Below are positions 39,320 to 51,441 of a stretch of 64,000 bases of DNA, piece by piece. The notes beneath the pieces were generated by a model. It searched no databases and was not told where the DNA came from. It saw only the letters and a list, made by a program, of their open reading frames with translations. The translations under genes and the position numbers were made by a program. This DNA is from Phycisphaeraceae bacterium. Lineage in GTDB: Bacteria > Planctomycetota > Phycisphaerae > Phycisphaerales > Phycisphaeraceae. Where the stretch lies: NCBI GenBank assembly GCA_002704825.1, contig PAIY01000228.1, forward strand, positions 1 to 64,000, given 5' to 3'. The first letter of the stretch is position 1. Each line of letters opens with the position of its first letter.

Positions 39320-39343
39320 AATGCGGGCGAGAGGACTCGAACC
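39320..39343. repeat. Left attachment repeat (tRNA-Leu 3' fragment)
   Basis: 24 bases (AATGCGGGCGAGAGGACTCG then AACC) identical to 51356-51379. Here they are followed by unrelated sequence, so only the last ~20 bases of a tRNA gene are present: the displaced 3' end left by integration. Confidence 0.9.
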
Positions 39344-40459: not shown

Positions 40460-40995
40460 CTGACAATTTGCCGACTGCGTGGAATCTGTGCTGGATCGTT
40501 GTGCGCGCTGTGTTCACGTGAAGGGGCATATTCTTACGTAAACCTGTATTATGTTGGGGCTTATCAAATACCTAACAAATACCTATAATTTATCGCCTAA
40601 GATATTGCTTTAAAAATAGTTAGCCTATTTCAAGCACATATCCATTTACAGCCTCTCACAATACTTTCTCCAAGCACTTAAAATGCCACACTAACCCTAT
40701 TTTCAGGGGAATAACGCCCATTTGTGGGTGGTTGCGCCATACGAGCAATACATCTTTGCGTTTTTGCACATCAAAGACATATCAATGCCAAACCGGGGGG
40801 GGCTTTGACATCTTTTTCGAATGTCACCCCCAAAAGGCGTAAGGGCTGGTTGCGACATACGACCAACAGCCATTTCTTAGCTGATAACCCGAAAAATTTC
40901 ATCTATTTGAAAATGCATCCGTGAACGGAGCACCGCATTGGCAAACAATCTAATAGGCGGGGCGATGATTCGACAGGATGATAAAGGTAAGAAAC
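40460..40995. other. AT-rich non-coding region with repeats, possible operator or origin
   Basis: Over 500 bases with no convincing gene. Two copies of GGTTGCGxCATACGAxCAA lie at 40730-40748 and 40848-40866, and a G-run (40794-40801) followed by CTTTGACAT pairs with ATGTCACCCCC near 40821-40831. AAATACCTA is repeated near 40567-40586. Together with the HUH-like gene just downstream, this could be a replication or transfer origin, or an operator region; I cannot decide between them. Confidence 0.4.
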
Positions 40996-41445
40996 ATGAA
41001 TCAAGAGATGCAAACCAGAGCGGCAGTGCTTGGAACCCTCAAAGGTCTTGGTCCTTGGACATTCGCGCTAACTTGGAATTTTAACCACAGCACCTTCGAT
41101 AAACAAGAATACAGCTTGCTCAGCGAGTTTGATAAACGAATCAACAGATCGCTTCTGAGCAAAAAGCACCACCTGCTACCTGACTGCAAACGCATTCTGT
41201 TCATTGCCATCAAAGCACACAAATCAGCACCGCACTATCACGGCGTGATTAAAGTGCCTTCAGATAAGCACGAGCGTTTTCTTGCGAAAGCCCCAGAGAT
41301 TTGGAACCGCATATGGCCCGCAGGCAGTCTGCACATTGGCCACGATCCCAACAGCTTCAAGTGGCAAGATTACATCGCATTCAATGACAACTGGCATAAC
41401 CTCAGCGATGAGTTTTTTGTCTCAACACAATTTAGAACCAGATGA
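40996..41445 (+). CDS. Small HUH-like protein
   Basis: Protein of 149 residues from ATG 40996, with AAAGG upstream. The feature of note is PHYHGVIKVP, an H-hydrophobic-H segment in the context seen in rolling-circle Rep and relaxase-like HUH nucleases (compare RPHYHG in phage and plasmid Rep proteins). Before it lies TFALTWNFN. The last part has WQDYIAFNDNW, where a YxxK-type nucleophile motif is expected, but Lys is absent, so activity is doubtful. It could be a short or decayed Rep-like protein of the island. A terminator follows at 41522. Confidence 0.5.
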   Translation: MNQEMQTRAAVLGTLKGLGPWTFALTWNFNHSTFDKQEYSLLSEFDKRINRSLLSKKHHLLPDCKRILFIAIKAHKSAPHYHGVIKVPSDKHERFLAKAPEIWNRIWPAGSLHIGHDPNSFKWQDYIAFNDNWHNLSDEFFVSTQFRTR

Positions 41446-41787: not shown

Positions 41788-42885
41788 CTACTCGGCCAAA
41801 GCTTCGTGTTTGAGAGCATCCTCTTGGTATTGTTTAATAATATCCGTTATCAGTGAATTAGTGTTGAGCACAAACTCATAAAGTGCGGCGTAGTAGATGT
41901 GCTTTGGACGGTATCCGGCGCGTCGTGCATATTGACGATGCAACTTCTCGAGTTGTTTGCGTACAGAGTTTTCCGTTGCCGAAATGTCGTCATCTCGCAA
42001 TAAATCAGCAACTTCTTTCTGTACATTTTGAATGTCTACATCAAGCGTAGTGCCCCAAAACTTTGTCAGCCCAAACATCTTATCGAGATTCGCCACGCGT
42101 TCCTTTTCAATTGCATCGACAGCCTCAAACTTGAGGGTCAGTAAGCGATCTGATTTTTCGTCAAAGCGCAGCAAGAACCGATCATGGGCTGACCGCCACC
42201 GAGGGTGAAACCACTTGCTGGTCTGATGGGCCGCAGTCCAATCCAAGGGCAGGACGGTGGACTTATTCATGTTGGCATCCGAACTGGAAGGAATAAGATT
42301 GTCTGGATGCAAACAAATAAATGGGAAGGATTCCTTCGGCAGGAAATGATCGAGTTGCGGACGCTGCATCGTGCCATCAGAGAAGGGACACACTGGAAGC
42401 AACGGGTCACGGGCCAAGTGTTTTCGCTTTAGCACATCTCCACCGCCGTGAAGAGTGGACGGATATCCTGCCGACTCGTAAAACCAAGGATTATAGAAAT
42501 CCAGCATAAGGTGACGCATCGCTTTACGTACTGGAGTTGCCTTCCAGAATGTCGAGTCTGTTTGACGCAGCCGATGTTCGGGAGGAATACAATACAGTTT
42601 TTTGAATCGATGCTGCTCGTCCATGATTTCATTCAGTTCGCGTTTGGCGGATGCATTTGCGGCGGCAATAGTGTTAAGCCAAGCCTGCCGGCGGCCATTC
42701 TCGTTCTCCCAGAATCGGCGTATCCAATCAGCATCAACTCGCGGCCATGCTGTACTCGACAACCATTCTTGGTCAACCGTCGATCCAGCAGGTAGTGCGC
42801 ATAATGCCCGCACCAGTTTCCGCTGGATCACGACGATTCGCATCAAACGTCGTCGGAGACTCGAATCAGGAACCGGGTGAAGCAT
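41788..42885 (-). CDS. HNH-type nuclease, PtuB-like, last gene of the defence operon
   Basis: Protein of 365 residues, the likely nuclease of the operon. The HNH core reads CPFSDGTMQRPQLDHFLPKE (C166, D179-H180) and HPDNLIPSSSDANMNKS (N196, N205), the DH...N...N layout of McrA-like nucleases and of PtuB. Only one Cys is left at the position where others have a CxxC zinc knuckle, so the metal-binding shell is reduced. The N-terminal ~140 and C-terminal ~120 residues are not recognised. It overlaps the upstream ATPase gene by 20 bases, so both products are needed together. Confidence 0.78.
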   Translation of the reverse strand: MLHPVPDSSLRRRLMRIVVIQRKLVRALCALPAGSTVDQEWLSSTAWPRVDADWIRRFWENENGRRQAWLNTIAAANASAKRELNEIMDEQHRFKKLYCIPPEHRLRQTDSTFWKATPVRKAMRHLMLDFYNPWFYESAGYPSTLHGGGDVLKRKHLARDPLLPVCPFSDGTMQRPQLDHFLPKESFPFICLHPDNLIPSSSDANMNKSTVLPLDWTAAHQTSKWFHPRWRSAHDRFLLRFDEKSDRLLTLKFEAVDAIEKERVANLDKMFGLTKFWGTTLDVDIQNVQKEVADLLRDDDISATENSVRKQLEKLHRQYARRAGYRPKHIYYAALYEFVLNTNSLITDIIKQYQEDALKHEALAE

Positions 42886-44734
42886 TCGTCAATTCATCCA
42901 AAATCTGTTGTAATTTTGCCCGTGGCCAGCCACCGCCAATGGTGTCAACCAACTTCTCCAGTTCGGCACGGTTCTTATCCGTCCAATCTTTCGCCAATTG
43001 CTTACGAAGTGCCTGCTCGGCGCGTGTGCCGATTGATGCCGTCATATCAAACACATGCAGCATCACCCGCCCCGGCTCCGCCCCGAACGTTGGGACTGAA
43101 ACCGGCTTAATCTCCGAGTGACCTTCTGATCGCACCAGACGCACTATTTCGCTGGCAAACGCATCGGTCAAAGCGATACTTGTATGGGTCGCTACGACGA
43201 CCTGTGCCTTAGTAGTCTTTAGCACGTTATCATCGACGATGTCGATGATCTCCCGCTTCCACGCGTCATTGAAATGTGTTTCCGGCTCGTCCAGTAGAAG
43301 CATGCCACCGTCCTGACCATCCAGCAGCAACAATAGTGACATGCGACCAAGCAGCATCTGTTCGCCATCACTGAAATCGTTCCAAGTCAATACCACATCA
43401 TCCTTGTCACCATCGTGGGCTGACATAGGACTAACTCGCTTCACTGTTACGGTCGCATCTTCGATTAGCCCTATAGCACGCCATGCCTGTAACGTCTGAA
43501 ACACATCCCACAACGGAAGATTTGGGCCTGTACTCAACGCCTGTACTACCGCCTCGGCTCCATTGGTCGCACCTGACACGCGTTTGATTACTTCCTGTAC
43601 CTCGACTGGAAGGTTACGATCACCATATACACCTTTGACATCAGCCTCAAAGTCTGGTCGTATCGTCCCCAGATCGATCACCATCTGCATGCGGTCCAGC
43701 GGTTGACTGATCACTTCATCAGCTAGAGCACACATCGTCAACCACTGCGATTGCCATTCCGCGTTCATCTTCGCGGTCGTCGGTCGATAAGTAATACTCA
43801 AGTGAGTCGGCCACCACCAGTCGATTTCATTTAGCAGCGTCCGCGCGTCCTTGTTTGTCGGACGTTTGCCGCGTTGTTGATCGAGGGCCATCTTCAAGAG
43901 TTGCTTTCGCCAAGCCGACATATCCCGCTGCGATTGATGCTTGCCCAATTCCTCTGCGGCAATAGTCAAACCCACCGCAATTGCTGCCAACTTCAAGTCC
44001 AGAGGCGCTAACAGCAGACACTTCGAATCAGCTTCCACATTGTCGGGCACAATCTGATCGCGAAGAGCTTGGCGTTGTGCGTCGTCGATCGCCACATCCG
44101 CTGAGGCCAATTCCCGACTCAAATTCCAGCCACGTGGTCGATCCTGATCGTCACTAACCTCGTTACTGCTCAGAGTCACAAGTTCATCACTTGGTAATTC
44201 CGGTTCACGAATCTTTCGCCACACCGTCATGTCACCTGATGTGTAAGCCACCAACGGCGTCGGAAGGTGCCTGCTAACCATTTGGTTCCCCACCAACTCA
44301 TCCCCCCGAATAAGCTTCTCTTTGGATTGTGGCAGCGATATATTCTCCGGATTATGTATACCCAACACCAAACCGGGCCAGTCTGATACATCGGGTTCCT
44401 TGATGTATTTCTTCCAACACCATGACCCCGTCGGCACCACCGCAAACACCGCCTTGCTCCGTGATCGCTCCAAGTGGCGAAACACCACAGTAGCATGATC
44501 GCCTTCCACCTCTGTCTCATACACCATCGCCACCGGAAACGGCGGCAACTTCTCAGCATGCAGCCAGCGGAATGTTTCGTACACCGCACGCAGTAAGCTG
44601 CTCTTACCTGTGCCGTTGAGCCCCACGACAAATTGAAGAGCCCCCTTTCGCGAAAGAATCGATTCCTCACGAAAGACCACCTCAAGGTCTTTTAGAACGC
44701 CGTAGTCGGGCAGGTGCAGATACTTTAGCCGCAT
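42866..44734 (-). CDS. ABC/SMC-type ATPase, PtuA-like, of the defence operon
   Basis: ATPase of 622 residues from ATG 44734 (MRLKYLHLPDYGVLK), two bases after the hsdS stop. Walker A GLNGTGKSS at 38-46, signature FSDGEQMLL at about 454, Walker B LLLDEPETHFND at about 479 and the switch His in VATHTS at about 517 are all intact. The insertion between Walker A and the signature is ~400 residues, long enough for a coiled-coil or lid domain. No TOPRIM is seen, so it is unlike OLD nucleases. PtuA of Septu and retron-linked ATPases are the closest class; I also recall a family called restriction system-associated AAA ATPase, which fits its place. Confidence 0.85.
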   Translation of the reverse strand: MRLKYLHLPDYGVLKDLEVVFREESILSRKGALQFVVGLNGTGKSSLLRAVYETFRWLHAEKLPPFPVAMVYETEVEGDHATVVFRHLERSRSKAVFAVVPTGSWCWKKYIKEPDVSDWPGLVLGIHNPENISLPQSKEKLIRGDELVGNQMVSRHLPTPLVAYTSGDMTVWRKIREPELPSDELVTLSSNEVSDDQDRPRGWNLSRELASADVAIDDAQRQALRDQIVPDNVEADSKCLLLAPLDLKLAAIAVGLTIAAEELGKHQSQRDMSAWRKQLLKMALDQQRGKRPTNKDARTLLNEIDWWWPTHLSITYRPTTAKMNAEWQSQWLTMCALADEVISQPLDRMQMVIDLGTIRPDFEADVKGVYGDRNLPVEVQEVIKRVSGATNGAEAVVQALSTGPNLPLWDVFQTLQAWRAIGLIEDATVTVKRVSPMSAHDGDKDDVVLTWNDFSDGEQMLLGRMSLLLLLDGQDGGMLLLDEPETHFNDAWKREIIDIVDDNVLKTTKAQVVVATHTSIALTDAFASEIVRLVRSEGHSEIKPVSVPTFGAEPGRVMLHVFDMTASIGTRAEQALRKQLAKDWTDKNRAELEKLVDTIGGGWPRAKLQQILDELTNASPGS

Positions 44735-44736
44735 AT

Positions 44737-46524
44737 TCAATCCCCCGTTTCTGGTTCCTCATCACTCAGCGTATCACTCACTACACGACTATGAATGCGA
44801 GCCAACCGTGAAAGTTCGGTCATCCGCTTCAATTCCGATTCTTCCTCCTCGCTCGCTTTCTCACGAACAAGGCGATAGACATTGCCGTAGCCTGCGTGTC
44901 CGCCACTATCGCCACTGCTGCTTACTCCCACACCAAGTGGCCGGCTGACCAGTTTCATCACGCCACGCGCCACCAACACCTCAAGGTGTCGCCGCAAAGC
45001 GTCGTCGGGCAGGTCGTCCAGCGGCTCGTTCAGCCAGTCACGCATCGAGTCCAGTGTAAACGCATCCCCAACTTCGGAAGCCCCCCCAAAAGTGTCCGAT
45101 GTCATCGCCTGTCGGACTTGATGAAGTAATTCTCGCTGCTCGCGGCTTAATTCGGAGTATCGGCCAGTCGTAGGCACATCACCGACTATCATCGACCGTA
45201 CTGGTTTGACCAGATTTACCCCTGCCGTCTTGAGCGCTGCATCGCGTTTAGCCACCTCCTTTGCCAGTTTGTCCCGATTCGCCTTTCGCCACGCGGTAGT
45301 CAGCCCCCCGCTGAATGCTTGGGCAAGGAGAGAAGCAAACAATTTAGCCTCACAAACGGCAGATTGCTTTGTCGCACTGCGTACCGTGCGCACCTGGGTG
45401 AGACGTTCAATAAATGTGAGTTGTTGTTTCAAAGGAGGCAGCGGTATCCGAATACGACTGTATTCCGCCGTATTAATATTGACTTGTACCGCCGAGCGGC
45501 GGGTGTTCTTCAGAAATAGCCGACGCCCACCCGGTGTTAGAAAGAGACTGTGAACGTAGTCCGGGTACACGACCGTACGATCGAAACGCACACGCATCAA
45601 ATGTGAGTCAAACGCGAGACCATCTTCTGCTTCTGTGATGATGACTGACTTGCCGAGATGATCGATCGAACCGATTGCACGGACGAGAACTAGGTCACCG
45701 GCTTGAACCAAATGGCGCACATTGTTCATATCTGATCGCGGCACTTGCCCAGCAAAAGTAAGATCAAGTTCGTTGCCCTGAATGTCTCCAACGCGAATGC
45801 ACCTAATGCCATCATCGGTGTCTGCCGCAGGAACCATCGTTCCATAGTTCGGCGACATCTCAAACAGATCACCAAGTGGCTTGATGTCAAACCCCTTGGG
45901 ATTCGACAACGGATCGCCGAACATGTCGTTGAAGATGGCAGGGATCAGTAGATTGGTCAGGTCGTCGGCCTGACGGCGGAGGCGACGTACTGCCCGGGCC
46001 TCGCCCAACACTTTCACAATCAACTTCTGCTCACTCAATGGGGGAAGAGGAATTTCTGTTGCAAGTACGTCGGAAGGAAGTAAATTGGCGATATTGGTCG
46101 TTTGCCTTGCCCGTTGCCTGAGATGCGCCTGAACAGGATTGCTAGCAAGCCACAGATACGCAAACTGAGAATCAAGTAGCGAAGACTCAACTCTGAGCCG
46201 TGATATGAACCCGCCAAACACTGCCTCATTTCTCAGCCTTGGCACAAAGCAGCATTTCCCCACGAGGTTATTACTGTTTGCTGTTGATACGAGTATGTCA
46301 CCCTCACGCAGAAAGTAGTCACGTTCATGCACGTGAGTGCGGGGTAAGAAGATTACATCGTTGGTGTCCAGTTCCTCCTGCACATTCGAAGTTCTATAGC
46401 AGGCAACGGCACCTGCCGCATCTGCCTCAACCAAATCTGGTGGGCTGAACGCAACGCCAGTCTTCATTGAGCAGACGGCCTCTAAACGAACTTGATTCCA
46501 TTGCTGGGGGAGTACATCAATCAT
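44737..46524 (-). CDS. hsdS: Type I specificity subunit HsdS with long C-terminal extension
   Basis: DNA-recognition subunit of 595 residues. Two target-recognition domains are visible: residues ~1-200 with central PLPPLSEQKLIVKVLGEARA and ~200-420 ending RIPLPPLKQQLTFIERLTQ, the conserved spacer helices. The last ~175 residues are an unusual extension with MTSDTFGGASEVGDAFTLDS and a winged-helix-like HLEVLVARGVMKLV. Its ATG overlaps the hsdM stop by four bases, and its own stop lies two bases before the ATPase ATG. The extension may contact the ATPase or HNH protein in place of HsdR. Confidence 0.9.
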   Translation of the reverse strand: MIDVLPQQWNQVRLEAVCSMKTGVAFSPPDLVEADAAGAVACYRTSNVQEELDTNDVIFLPRTHVHERDYFLREGDILVSTANSNNLVGKCCFVPRLRNEAVFGGFISRLRVESSLLDSQFAYLWLASNPVQAHLRQRARQTTNIANLLPSDVLATEIPLPPLSEQKLIVKVLGEARAVRRLRRQADDLTNLLIPAIFNDMFGDPLSNPKGFDIKPLGDLFEMSPNYGTMVPAADTDDGIRCIRVGDIQGNELDLTFAGQVPRSDMNNVRHLVQAGDLVLVRAIGSIDHLGKSVIITEAEDGLAFDSHLMRVRFDRTVVYPDYVHSLFLTPGGRRLFLKNTRRSAVQVNINTAEYSRIRIPLPPLKQQLTFIERLTQVRTVRSATKQSAVCEAKLFASLLAQAFSGGLTTAWRKANRDKLAKEVAKRDAALKTAGVNLVKPVRSMIVGDVPTTGRYSELSREQRELLHQVRQAMTSDTFGGASEVGDAFTLDSMRDWLNEPLDDLPDDALRRHLEVLVARGVMKLVSRPLGVGVSSSGDSGGHAGYGNVYRLVREKASEEEESELKRMTELSRLARIHSRVVSDTLSDEEPETGD

Positions 46525-49004
46525 CCGGCGTTCCCAACCATGTCCAGCAGATTCTTGAGCTTGGAGCGGATATCCGCATGCACCTTGTCGAGTTGTTTGA
46601 TCAATGCGGCAGGCTTTTCGTAGTCGCCGGGTTCAAAGACAAAGGGCTTGTAGCGACCAGCGGAAAGGTTCAGGTCAGCGGCTTCAATACAGTCAGGATC
46701 GAGTCGATCACGGTAGTCGAGTTTGACCGTGCCATCTTTCTCAAAGATTTTCAGTTGCTCAGTGAGGAACTTGAGATATTTGAGATCGACTTCGCCATTA
46801 GCGTTATGTGTAGGCTTGCGGATTTCTTTGCCCGTCTTGGGATCTTTACCCCACGAATCAAGCTGTGCCCAAGCTCGTACGGGTGTGATCCATGCCAATT
46901 GCTGAACATCTTTCTGAGCGTCAGCATCTTTACGATCACGGCGTTCGGACTTGACGCTACGGAGAAGGAGGTTGTAGCCATCGAGTCGGGCGAAGCATTT
47001 TAGGATGACGAGCATCTGCTTTTGAGGCACCGTTTCAAGTATGGGCTTTCTCGGTTTTGTGGTGATGCCTTTGAATGCTTTAGCAAGTTTGGCCTGCGCC
47101 CCCAATGCGGTGGTGTCGAGTGTGTCGCGCAGGGCGATTAGGGCAAACTGGTCGAACTCATGATCGAGTATCCGCTTGCTACGACTAAGTTTGATCAATT
47201 CATTACGAAACTGTCGAAGGCGTCTGTCCAAGTCAGTCTTGGCTGTTTGTAAAGTTTTATTTTTACTTTTGTCCTTTGACCATGACGCGGCGAGAGTTGC
47301 TTTTACGAGGCGCTCGTAGGCCTTGACAATCAATTTCTCACCATCAGCACAGACCTGTGCGGTAGCATCTTTGGGATCACGGTTTAATTCGGAGAAGACC
47401 TCTTGGATGCCCAATGCGTGGCCAGCCTGAGATTTTTCATTAGGAAAAACGTGGAGAAAGTCCTCATCGAGCACGCGCCATCGTTCTTGCCAATATTCAG
47501 GCTGATGATAGGCAGTGGTTACAGCCTGATCTCGCTGGTTGGGCATATCGGTGCCTTGGAGTACCTTGTGCCAACTTTGGAATTTTTCGACAGCGTCATA
47601 GAGATCATTGTTCTGGTAGAGCCGGTCCTTGCGCTTCTGATCGAGTGTGTATGCTTCATCGTTGACCTCGTAAAACCAGACCTCATGAGTACGAGGCGGA
47701 TCGCCGGGCACGATTGCAGTGTCGTCGTCCGAACTCTTGGCCTTCTGGAAAATGAGAATGGAGGTCTTCACTCCGGCATAGGGCTGGAACACGCCCCCGG
47801 GTAGCGAAACGACGCCTTCAAGGGTGTGTTCAAATAGCAGTTGACGACGAAGCTCAATGTGAGCCTTGGTAGAACCAAACAGAACGCCATCGGGCACAAC
47901 GACGGCACATCGTCCACCGATGCGTAGCAAATCAAGCATTAGCCAAACAAAAAGCAATTCACTCTTTGTGGTGATCGGCTTATTTTTATTGCCCGAAGCG
48001 GGGAAACGACGGCGATTGGTTGACAGATCGCCTTCATCCACGCTACCAGTGAACGGTGGATTGGCGAGAATGAAATCGAATTTGTTACTAAGGCTCTTCT
48101 CGTCCATCCGTTTGGATAACGCGTCGAGTTGTTCAATGTTGGGGAAGTCCAGATCATGAAGAATGAGGTTCATCCACGCAATACGAACCATCGTGCGATC
48201 ATTGTCATAGCCATAAAAACAGTTATTGAGGTCAAGCCCGTCAGGCAGTGTGCCGAACGTACGGTGCGGGGTGCCGTCCCATTCAATGCGAAGTGTTTGA
48301 GGGTCAGTGGCCTGTTTTTTCCAGTGCAAGAGTGTATTAACAAGAAACCCACCAGTACCGCACGCGGGATCGAGGATGTTCGAACCAACGGGTGGGTCGA
48401 GCATTTCTACCATGAAGCGGATGATGTGGCGCGGTGTTCGGAACTGACCATTCTTGCCGGCTGACTGAATCTCACTAAGCAAATACTCGAAGATATCGCC
48501 CATGATATCCGCGTTGGCGCTGCGGGAGTCGAGTTGGGTAAACAAATCGTCGATCTCCTCGACGGCTCGTTTTAATGTGTCGACCTTGTTGGTATCGAGG
48601 ATAAAATATGCGTCATCGAGCCGACCGCTAATCTTTTCAAGTGGATCGTGATTAGACGGATTGTTCGCCTTCAGCCACTTCTCCAAGTTGCGCAGCCAAG
48701 GAAAGACCGTTTCGTTAAGCAGTGTGAATGAGGGGTCTTTGCGGATGTGGCTCCACTTGCACTTGGTGTAGTCGTTCTTGATCTTTCGATTTTGTCGTTT
48801 CCGTCCCCTCTTGTTCTGTTCGTAATCGATGTAGAAAATAGTTGGCTTGCCTGATTTGACGCGCTGCTGGTCGAAATGTTCGAGCTGACGGAGAAAGAGC
48901 AGGTAGGTGATCTGCTCGATGGCAACGAGGGGATTAGTCATACCCGCAGACCAGAACATGGTCCAGAGGCCGTGAATCTTATTTCGCAGTTTCGGTGAAA
49001 GCAT
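46521..49004 (-). CDS. hsdM: Type I methyltransferase subunit HsdM (long form)
   Basis: N6-adenine DNA methyltransferase subunit of 827 residues; classical HsdM has about 500-530. The N-terminal helical domain is followed by motif I (DPACGTGGF, ~212) and the catalytic NPPF (315-318). About 300 residues beyond the usual end are rich in charge and coiled-coil-like, and carry the unusual FVFEPGDYEKPAALIKQLDK near the C terminus. It forms an operon with hsdS, the ATPase and the HNH gene through overlaps, and no hsdR exists on the island or elsewhere in this window. An upstream HTH gene, 135 bases away, reads the same way. Confidence 0.92.
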   Translation of the reverse strand: MLSPKLRNKIHGLWTMFWSAGMTNPLVAIEQITYLLFLRQLEHFDQQRVKSGKPTIFYIDYEQNKRGRKRQNRKIKNDYTKCKWSHIRKDPSFTLLNETVFPWLRNLEKWLKANNPSNHDPLEKISGRLDDAYFILDTNKVDTLKRAVEEIDDLFTQLDSRSANADIMGDIFEYLLSEIQSAGKNGQFRTPRHIIRFMVEMLDPPVGSNILDPACGTGGFLVNTLLHWKKQATDPQTLRIEWDGTPHRTFGTLPDGLDLNNCFYGYDNDRTMVRIAWMNLILHDLDFPNIEQLDALSKRMDEKSLSNKFDFILANPPFTGSVDEGDLSTNRRRFPASGNKNKPITTKSELLFVWLMLDLLRIGGRCAVVVPDGVLFGSTKAHIELRRQLLFEHTLEGVVSLPGGVFQPYAGVKTSILIFQKAKSSDDDTAIVPGDPPRTHEVWFYEVNDEAYTLDQKRKDRLYQNNDLYDAVEKFQSWHKVLQGTDMPNQRDQAVTTAYHQPEYWQERWRVLDEDFLHVFPNEKSQAGHALGIQEVFSELNRDPKDATAQVCADGEKLIVKAYERLVKATLAASWSKDKSKNKTLQTAKTDLDRRLRQFRNELIKLSRSKRILDHEFDQFALIALRDTLDTTALGAQAKLAKAFKGITTKPRKPILETVPQKQMLVILKCFARLDGYNLLLRSVKSERRDRKDADAQKDVQQLAWITPVRAWAQLDSWGKDPKTGKEIRKPTHNANGEVDLKYLKFLTEQLKIFEKDGTVKLDYRDRLDPDCIEAADLNLSAGRYKPFVFEPGDYEKPAALIKQLDKVHADIRSKLKNLLDMVGNAG

Positions 49005-49138: not shown

Positions 49139-49333
49139 TCAGTCACCATTCTGAGCATCCTGTCTCTTCTCAAGCCAATGGTCTATAGCGTCTCGCTTGA
49201 ACCGCCAGTGGCGGCCAATCTTAGTCCCCGGTACTTCACCGCGCCGAACAAGGTGATAGAGGGTGGACTTACTGATTTTAAGGTAGTCCGCCAACTCGTC
49301 GATCGTCATTACGGAATCGGTTTGCCTTGGCAT
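49139..49333 (-). CDS. Excisionase/HTH_17-type DNA-binding protein
   Basis: Protein of 64 residues from ATG 49333 (MPRQTDSVMTIDELADYLKI), with AGGA at ribosome-site distance. It is one MerR-like winged helix: IDELADYLKISKSTLYHLVR then RRGEVPGTKIGRHWRFKR. Such proteins act as recombination directionality factors or as small regulators. It lies between the recombinase and hsdM genes on the same strand, so it may both help excision and control the defence operon. Confidence 0.85.
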   Translation of the reverse strand: MPRQTDSVMTIDELADYLKISKSTLYHLVRRGEVPGTKIGRHWRFKRDAIDHWLEKRQDAQNGD

Positions 49334-49680: not shown

Positions 49681-51177
49681 TCACGCTTCAAGGAAGTGTT
49701 GCAGTTGCTCGTGAACCTGCATCGTCGCCTCAGCCACCTTATCGAATGGGCGATTGGAATAGATATCTGCCAAATCATCGCTCTTTACAGCGCGCCCGTG
49801 CATCAAGAAAACACCTGCGATTTCACCATCACTCACATTACGTACAAGCTGAGCAGCAGTCTTGCGCATATATTTAAAACCAAATTGCTTGTGTTTCACT
49901 TGAAGTTCTGGTCTTACTTTTACAACACGCTTCATGAACCTAGACCATTGACTGCCAATACTTTTTCCTGTCGACGGCTCGCCTCTCGTCGATAAAACCG
50001 CAGCTTCATGGTTGCCACCATGTTCGGCCCAATGAGCTTCAAGAGCTTGCATAGTTTCCGGCCAAAGAGGCCATTGCCCTAACACGTGATTCTTGTGTCG
50101 AAGCCGCTTGATCTGAGGGGGGTCAGAAGAATCATCAATCTCTGATTTTAGCAACGATTGAATTTCAGCCCCCGCAGCCCCTGTATTTAAACTCAACAAC
50201 ATTAACAGTCGTTCATATGGTCTAGCCAGTCCGTACAGAATGCCTAGCTCTTCTATTGTCCAGACAAGTACCCCCTCGGCTTTCTCTGAAATTTCTTTAG
50301 GGGTCATTATGCTTTTGGCATCGACTCTGAGTATTCGCTCAGCACCTTTGGGTTTATCCCATTCCCATGTATCTGATTCATCAAGCCAATTCACGAAACG
50401 ACGAGCATCGCTGAGCATATTGCCAACCGTAGCGACACTGATTGGACGCTCAGTTACACCCTTTACAGTTCGAGCAAAGGGACGACTTGCCCAATAATTT
50501 GTAATCTCTTCAAGAGCAGAGCGGCCAACCTCATCAAGCGGACGATCCACCACACTATGCTTAAGTTGTAATGCTCTTTTGCTCTGTGTTTCCGCACCTT
50601 TAATGTGTCTACCAGCTAACCATTCAGAGAAGGATTCGATAGCTGCGTGAAGCATTTGCCCGTTGTGCGGTCTTGTTGGAGAACGAACTTGTGCAACACT
50701 GGCTTGGTACTCGGCAACAACTCGCATATCTTCCACTTTCCCTGCTGCGACTTGCTTTCCCGCTTCAAGCAATTCAGGATCAGCAGGTGTAACCGTGACC
50801 ATATGGAACATCGACTTTATATGTGCAAAAGTCAAAGCATAAGAATAGGCTCGATGTACAGGATCGGGAATCGTGTTTATTTGTGGTGGTACATCAAACA
50901 CAATGTTTCTCTTACCTTTGGCAATCTGTTTGGCTCCCCACAATTGCCATCCGTACCATATGGTTTCTTTTGCTTCAAACCCTCCCGCAATACATTCTTT
51001 CACAAGGTCATTCCATATCTGCTCGATAAGCAACACTGACTGCTCAGCACGAGACCTATCGTATCCCAAAGCAAAACGAACAGATAACTTTTTGCCACTT
51101 GCTGAAATGACATTCCCCATATCGCGGGTAAAGCCGCGCCCTTCACGAAAAGTAACTTCGACTGATGATCGTGTCAT
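49681..51177 (-). CDS. Diverged tyrosine recombinase (integrase)
   Basis: Protein of 498 residues, the likely integrase of the island. The C-terminal half has the recombinase layout: LLSLNTGAAGAEIQSLLKSE at about 335, FKYMRKTAAQLV with Arg at 438, FLMHGRA with His at 460 and ADIYSN with the presumed nucleophile Tyr at 473. The first catalytic Arg (TGxRxxE) is replaced by Ala. Residues before ~320 include a SAM-like core-binding domain (VGNMLSDARRFVNWLDESDT). It lies 182 bases from the tRNA-Leu and is transcribed away from it. Planctomycete integrases are often degenerate at this Arg, so activity is possible. Confidence 0.75.
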   Translation of the reverse strand: MTRSSVEVTFREGRGFTRDMGNVISASGKKLSVRFALGYDRSRAEQSVLLIEQIWNDLVKECIAGGFEAKETIWYGWQLWGAKQIAKGKRNIVFDVPPQINTIPDPVHRAYSYALTFAHIKSMFHMVTVTPADPELLEAGKQVAAGKVEDMRVVAEYQASVAQVRSPTRPHNGQMLHAAIESFSEWLAGRHIKGAETQSKRALQLKHSVVDRPLDEVGRSALEEITNYWASRPFARTVKGVTERPISVATVGNMLSDARRFVNWLDESDTWEWDKPKGAERILRVDAKSIMTPKEISEKAEGVLVWTIEELGILYGLARPYERLLMLLSLNTGAAGAEIQSLLKSEIDDSSDPPQIKRLRHKNHVLGQWPLWPETMQALEAHWAEHGGNHEAAVLSTRGEPSTGKSIGSQWSRFMKRVVKVRPELQVKHKQFGFKYMRKTAAQLVRNVSDGEIAGVFLMHGRAVKSDDLADIYSNRPFDKVAEATMQVHEQLQHFLEA

Positions 51178-51355: not shown

Positions 51356-51379
51356 AATGCGGGCGAGAGGACTCGAACC
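51356..51379. repeat. Right attachment repeat (within tRNA-Leu 3' end)
   Basis: Identical over 24 bases to 39320-39343. It covers the 3' acceptor strand and part of the T-arm of the intact tRNA gene. Confidence 0.9.
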
Positions 51380-51441
51380 TCCACGGGTGTTACCCCACCA
51401 GAACCTAAATCTGACGCGTCTGCCAATTTCGCCACGCCCGC
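51359..51441 (-). tRNA. tRNA-Leu (anticodon UAG)
   Basis: 83 bases with a perfect 7-bp acceptor stem (GCGGGCG / CGCCCGC), a leucine-type long variable arm, the T-arm GGTTCGAGTCC and an anticodon stem-loop TCAGA-TTTAGGT-TCTGG reading UAG, which decodes CUA-type leucine codons. CCA is not encoded. The gene is the insertion site of the island and stays complete. Confidence 0.96.

What the first reader, a model, noticed from the sequence alone, without database searches (positions are those of the whole stretch)
41788..49004. Type I HsdM-HsdS operon in which an ATPase-HNH pair replaces HsdR
Four genes are chained by overlaps or a 2-base gap: hsdM, hsdS, ABC/SMC-type ATPase, HNH nuclease. No hsdR is on the island or elsewhere in the window. 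HsdM (827 aa) and HsdS (595 aa) both carry long C-terminal extensions, which could dock the new effector. ATPase plus HNH is the layout of Septu PtuA-PtuB. I infer that methylation marks self DNA and the ATPase-HNH complex attacks unmethylated DNA, giving a hybrid of type I modification and a Septu-like effector. A family name for restriction-associated AAA ATPases exists in my memory, so the association may be catalogued, but I know of no mechanism for it.
Basis: partly seen in the sequence, partly recalled or inferred. Interest (0 to 1): 0.85.

Follow-up and report, generated by a model that had tools for sequence, protein, structure and literature searches.

The report
Restriction operon with spare nuclease pair
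A mobile DNA island in a planctomycete carries a DNA-marking system that has lost its usual cutting enzyme but keeps a linked ATPase-nuclease pair, which in most relatives sits beside the cutter as an extra weapon rather than replacing it.

Summary
hsdM, hsdS, an ABC/PtuA-like ATPase and an HNH/PtuB-like nuclease form one tight operon at 49004-41788 (-). It lies on a 12-kb island bounded by 24-bp tRNA-Leu repeats. No hsdR is on the island or detectable in the 89%-complete genome.

The inference that the pair replaces HsdR is wrong as a general rule. In 28 of 32 assessable operons the order is hsdR-hsdM-hsdS-ATPase-HNH, and the HsdRs keep their nuclease and motor motifs. HsdR loss is derived here: the nearest planctomycete relatives outside its subclade still have it. 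One independent intact HsdR-less operon occurs in Pseudomonas protegens, so loss is tolerated.

New here: the ~270-residue HsdM extension co-occurs perfectly with the ATPase (the same 4 of 392 planctomycete genomes). That suggests a docking module. In two sister genomes the pair outlives HsdR and most or all of HsdM, and shows purifying selection.

Most likely the pair is a PtuAB-type backup effector attached to the methylase complex, in the logic of PrrC and PARIS. The coupling of such ATPases to nucleases in restriction systems is already noted in the literature. I rate this a new variant of a known kind.

The parts
46521..49004 (-). hsdM, 827 aa adenine methyltransferase subunit with a ~270-residue helical insert before the common HsdM tail
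   Evidence: PF02384 3e-55, PF12161 4e-11; 63% identical over full length to HsdM of the hsdR-bearing planctomycete operon L054
46524..47504 (-). HsdM C-terminal extension (residues 501-827)
   Evidence: Profile A4 hits the same 4 of 392 planctomycete genomes as the ATPase; model shows three long confident helices
44737..46524 (-). hsdS, 595 aa specificity subunit; residues ~405-595 are a conserved C-terminal extension
   Evidence: PF01420, Specificity_I 5e-75; extension conserved in relatives
42866..44734 (-). ABC/OLD/PtuA-like ATPase, 622 aa from the conserved ATG
   Evidence: PtuA PDLC00293 1e-30, TIGR04435 91 bits, below its cut-off of 300; Walker A GLNGTGKS and DGEQ signature, H519 invariant; best solved match retron Ec78 PtuA 1.9e-11
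41788..42885 (-). HNH nuclease, 365 aa, PtuB-like core; catalytic H180, N196, N205 kept, three of four structural zinc cysteines lost
   Evidence: PDC-M01B 2e-16; alignments; all nine best fold matches are PtuB of retrons or Septu, though each is weak
49139..49333 (-). 64-aa excisionase-like helix-turn-helix gene between integrase and hsdM, where hsdR lies in relatives
   Evidence: PF12728 1e-20; coordinates
49681..51177 (-). tyrosine-integrase-like protein, 498 aa
   Evidence: Weak PF00589; adjoins tRNA-Leu; 30% identical to a protein beside operon L054
51356..51379 (.). attachment repeat within the tRNA-Leu 3' end
   Evidence: 24-bp exact direct repeat, spacing 12036
39320..39343 (.). attachment repeat at the other end of the island
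   Evidence: flanks are contiguous in a same-genus finished genome, the empty site
51358..51441 (-). tRNA-Leu, integration target, left intact

Best explanation
This is an HsdR-less derivative of a five-gene defence cassette, hsdR-hsdM-hsdS-ptuA-like-ptuB-like, carried by a tRNA-Leu integrative island. HsdM2S methylates its target sites (inferred from intact motifs). The ATPase-HNH complex is a PtuAB-type accessory effector that docks on the methylase complex through the HsdM helical extension and probably the HsdS C-terminal domain (inferred from co-occurrence). Most likely it is held inactive there and released or activated when a phage blocks or perturbs the complex, for example with a DNA-mimic anti-restriction protein. 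The HNH then cuts nucleic acid (phage DNA, or host tRNA as reported for retron-Eco7) and stops infection. Because the pair does not need HsdR, HsdR could be lost. Shown: gene content, ancestry, loss of HsdR, co-occurrence, motifs. Inferred: docking, silencing, trigger and target. My confidence is about 0.9 for the ancestry and accessory-effector part and about 0.45 for the guard mechanism.
For: 28 of 32 assessable operons have hsdR directly upstream of hsdM: 26 mapped plus L054 and L055; the window, L036, L053 and L080 do not. Those HsdRs keep VEAK, Walker A (ATGTGKT) and helicase motifs. On the ATPase tree the window and L053 are sisters (91/88), inside a 100/99 clade with the hsdR-bearing L015 and L054 and a 100/100 clade that adds L055. 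The HsdM extension and the ATPase occur in the same 4 of 392 genomes, Fisher p about 1e-9. The pair is PtuA/PtuB-like by profile and the HNH by fold. The pair persists in G349 and G809 without HsdR at the locus and with HsdM truncated or gone, and between those two genomes dN/dS is about 0.10 (ATPase) and 0.17 (HNH). Precedents for effectors tied to type I systems: PrrC in EcoprrI (PMC3874165), PrrC and PARIS as 'RM guardian systems' (PMC12707154), OLD-ABC plus HNH dyads as backup effectors (PMC12839542), retron-Eco7 PtuAB depleting tRNA-Tyr (PMC11555353).
Against: No experiment and no complex model; docking is inferred from co-occurrence only. If HsdMS were needed to silence the pair, G809, which keeps only a piece of HsdS, should be harmed unless that piece suffices or the pair is silent. 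L036 and Herpetosiphon L007 have HsdMs of 571-625 aa; L036 lacks most of the extension. The co-occurrence rests on four positive genomes with related operons. When HsdM was lost relative to the G349/G809 split is unknown, so the low dN/dS may partly predate it.
Confidence: 0.55

Rival explanations
1. One reading: HsdMS finds unmethylated target sites and recruits the ATPase-HNH complex, which cuts that DNA in place of HsdR.
For: HsdM and HsdS are full length and HsdM motifs are intact although HsdR is gone. A second, independent intact HsdR-less operon, P. protegens L036, lies in a genome whose two other HsdR-type genes have their own HsdM and HsdS. The HsdM extension is specific to ATPase-HNH operons in the sampled genomes.
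Against: HsdR with intact motifs is kept in 28 of 32 operons, so the pair does not normally substitute for it. Two sister genomes keep the pair without all of the DNA-recognition or methylase parts. L036 lacks most of the HsdM extension.
Confidence: 0.22
2. Decay product: after HsdR loss, HsdMS is an orphan methylase and the ATPase-HNH pair works as an independent Septu-like or PDC-M01-like system that only happens to be co-transcribed.
For: HsdR or HsdM is lost or broken in relatives L015, L053 and L080, in L015 and L053 beside transposase genes. Related ATPase-HNH pairs stand alone in Streptomyces and Priestia plasmids. The pair evolves under purifying selection in operons without HsdR.
Against: This subfamily is linked to hsd genes in every locus with enough sequence, gene overlaps that suggest translational coupling are kept, and the extension co-occurs with the pair.
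Confidence: 0.19
3. A cognate HsdR is encoded elsewhere in this genome, in the unassembled ~11%, and the system is an ordinary five-gene type I cassette acting partly in trans.
For: Assembly is 88.9% complete in 268 contigs.
Against: In relatives hsdR lies directly upstream of hsdM. Here that place holds an excisionase-like gene and the integrase inside an att-bounded island. No HSDR_N was found. Sister genomes G349 and G809 also lack it at this locus.
Confidence: 0.04

Closest known systems
Type I restriction-modification system with EcoEI-type HsdR
   Same: hsdM and hsdS with standard domains; in relatives an HsdR with EcoEI_R_C, HSDR_N and helicase motifs
   Different: No hsdR here; HsdM has an extra ~270-residue helical region; two extra effector genes
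Septu / retron Ec78 (Eco7) PtuA-PtuB
   Same: ATPase and HNH adjacent and overlapping; best solved matches by sequence are retron Ec78 PtuA and PtuB; best fold matches of the HNH are PtuB of retrons and Septu
   Different: Coupled to HsdMS instead of standing alone or with a reverse transcriptase; HNH is longer (365 against ~215-266 aa) with its own N- and C-terminal helical parts
PADLOC candidate PDC-M01 (A ATPase, B HNH)
   Same: All 16 HNH proteins scanned match PDC-M01B; ATPase matches PDC-M01A weakly
   Different: A typical PDC-M01A such as the Streptomyces one scores 523 bits; ours about 40
EcoprrI-PrrC
   Same: Nuclease gene with an ABC-ATPase domain embedded in a type I operon (PMC3874165, PMC2610378)
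   Different: PrrC is one protein cutting tRNA-Lys; here a separate ATPase and HNH; target unknown
PARIS (AriA-AriB) and OLD-ABC/HNH dyads of BREX and RM-like systems
   Same: OLD/ABC ATPase paired with a nuclease beside a DNA-modification defence (PMC12839542)
   Different: PARIS uses TOPRIM; the dyads described there sit with BREX. The Krishnan 2020 survey of RM-like systems was not readable here and may describe this very operon

Membership tests
Type I restriction-modification system (restriction-competent) | hsdM and hsdS with N6_Mtase and Methylase_S domains | tested here: met
Type I restriction-modification system (restriction-competent) | hsdR | tested here: not met
   Absent from window and from the available genome; genome 89% complete
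Septu | PtuA-like ATPase next to PtuB-like HNH nuclease | tested here: met
Septu | Works as a two-gene system on its own against phage | not testable with these tools
   Genetically tied to hsdMS in this subfamily
TIGR04435 restriction system-associated AAA ATPase | Score above curated cut-off (300 bits) | tested here: not met
   91 bits; all 16 relatives match the family but the best E-value is only 4.8e-34
PADLOC PDC-M01 | HNH matches PDC-M01B and ATPase matches PDC-M01A | tested here: inconclusive
   HNH 1.7e-16, ATPase 2.7e-11 but PtuA 1e-30 is better
MADS (methylation-associated defence system) | MAD2, MAD3 and MAD5 over cut-off | tested here: not met
   122.9 against 720, 15.2 against 420, 46.7 against 400 bits
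PrrC-type RM guardian | Effector gene embedded in a type I operon | tested here: met
PrrC-type RM guardian | Effector silenced by the RM complex and activated by anti-restriction | not testable with these tools
   Needs experiment

The most novel reading that the evidence does not exclude
HsdMS plus a PtuAB-like pair is a self-sufficient HsdR-independent defence, in which the HsdM helical extension ties the ATPase-HNH complex to the methylase so that methylation state or phage inhibition of the methylase directly controls a Septu-type nuclease. It would have arisen at least twice, in planctomycetes and in Pseudomonas protegens (the latter without most of the extension).
Probability: 0.22. Interest if true: 0.72.

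Novelty: new variant of a known kind. Interest (0 to 1): 0.45.

Why it matters
The five-gene cassette couples a sequence-marking enzyme to a PtuAB-type nuclease, and natural HsdR-less versions separate the two outputs. They allow a direct test of whether PtuAB-type effectors guard restriction systems, as PrrC and PARIS do, and of how a methylase complex can control a Septu-like nuclease. The HsdM extension is a concrete, deletable candidate for the control point.

Tried and rejected
Single-protein scan of viral contigs found nothing, nor did phage records. HsdR remnant in the window: none above noise. HsdR in trans: only weak matches to shorter helicase-like ORFs in the own genome. MADS membership rejected on cut-offs. 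Fold search of the HsdM extension gave no solved match (best E 0.88). Literature searches found no paper describing an hsdRMS-PtuAB-like operon, but the likeliest one (Krishnan 2020, doi 10.1093/nar/gkaa726) is not held. The 22-bp repeat at 41938/46578 was taken as chance.

Full report
What is there. Domain searches confirm HsdM, HsdS, an AAA_21/ABC-type ATPase and, through PADLOC rather than Pfam, an HNH protein of the PDC-M01B/PtuB kind. Catalytic motifs are intact: DPACGTG and NPPF in HsdM, GLNGTGKS and DGEQ in the ATPase, and H180, N196 and N205 in the HNH, which are invariant across relatives. The HNH has lost three of the four structural cysteines that most relatives keep, yet its model is confident (pLDDT 91) and its nine best structural matches are all PtuB of retrons or Septu; each match is weak on its own (best E 3.4e-3) but nothing else competes.

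The island. A 24-bp exact repeat of the tRNA-Leu 3' end at 39320 and 51356 bounds a 12,036-bp element with an integrase-like gene and an excisionase-like 64-aa gene. In a finished genome of the same genus the left flank lies directly against the tRNA, an empty site. The element therefore looks complete, and it has no hsdR. The genome shows no HSDR_N domain and only weak matches to shorter helicase-like ORFs with a full-length HsdR query; it is 88.9% complete.

Relatives. An alignment of the window ATPase with that of a Pantoea plasmid operon found 34 loci in 84,980 species genomes. Mapping showed the order hsdR-hsdM-hsdS-ATPase-HNH wherever the contig reaches far enough, except L036; the Herpetosiphon plasmid operon L007 has a second methylase gene. 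Planctomycete searches added L053, L054, L055 and L080. In total 28 of 32 assessable operons have hsdR, with nuclease (VEAK) and motor motifs kept. The exceptions are the window, P. protegens L036, L053 (HsdM cut down beside an IS3-like transposase) and L080 (only an HsdS piece, ATPase and HNH). In P. protegens the two HsdR-type genes elsewhere each lie next to their own hsdM and hsdS. The pair is therefore an addition to a complete type I system, and HsdR was lost secondarily at least twice.

Phylogeny. On the ATPase tree the window is sister to L053 (91/88), within clades containing the hsdR-bearing L015, L054 and L055. All three known members of the window's subclade lack hsdR (window, L053, L080), so the loss may be ancestral to it; L080 was found after the tree was built and is placed there by taxonomy (same genus as L053) and 84% ATPase identity to L053.

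The HsdM extension. A profile of the C-terminal 327 residues hits full length in exactly the four planctomycete genomes that hold the ATPase, of 392; three others match only the last ~55 positions, a tail found in other HsdMs. Of 369 genomes drawn from the class of P. benzenivorans only that operon-bearing species matched. A model shows three long, confident helices with no solved counterpart. A dedicated docking module is the simplest reading, but co-occurrence is not proof and the four operons are related.

Selection. Between G349 and G809 the ATPase has dN 0.09 and dS 0.88, and the HNH 0.09 and 0.52, with intact frames. The pair is functionally constrained in a genus where HsdR is gone from the locus and HsdM is broken or gone, although the timing of loss relative to the split is not resolved.

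Mechanism. Two readings survive: a guard or backup effector (PrrC/PARIS logic) or an HsdMS-guided restriction effector. The usual co-presence of HsdR and the persistence of the pair after loss of methylase and recognition parts favour the first. The two intact four-gene operons, in the window and in L036, keep the second alive. The HNH target (DNA or tRNA) cannot be told: Septu PtuAB is reported to degrade DNA and retron-Eco7 PtuAB depletes tRNA-Tyr (PMC11555353).

Known context. NCBIfam TIGR04435, named restriction system-associated AAA ATPase, is the nearest ATPase family by name, but our protein scores 91 bits against a cut-off of 300. [quoted passage not shown] I therefore call this a new variant of a known kind: HsdR-less, with a specific HsdM extension.

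Noticed in passing
L015:4401-8244: In Planctomycetes bacterium TBK1r the hsdM of the five-gene operon is split by a DDE_Tnp_1 transposase gene while the other four genes stay open.
   Followed up: partly
L080:11730-15419: Operon reduced to the HsdS C-terminal piece plus intact ATPase and HNH; the kept HsdS piece contains the conserved extension next to the ATPase.
   Followed up: partly
40978-41445: Small ORF on the island with weak similarity to phage-type replication proteins (REP_ORF2-G2P, E 0.0012), which may hint at the island's replication mode.
   Followed up: no
L007:4028-10426: Herpetosiphon plasmid operon has two N6-methyltransferase genes around hsdS before the ATPase.
   Followed up: no
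L054:4225-6174: A protein about 30% identical to the window's integrase lies directly downstream of the five-gene operon, suggesting recurrent mobility with related integrases.
   Followed up: partly
41788-42885: HNH protein keeps the catalytic residues but has lost three of four zinc-binding cysteines; L015 has lost one, so the loss looks stepwise in planctomycetes.
   Followed up: partly
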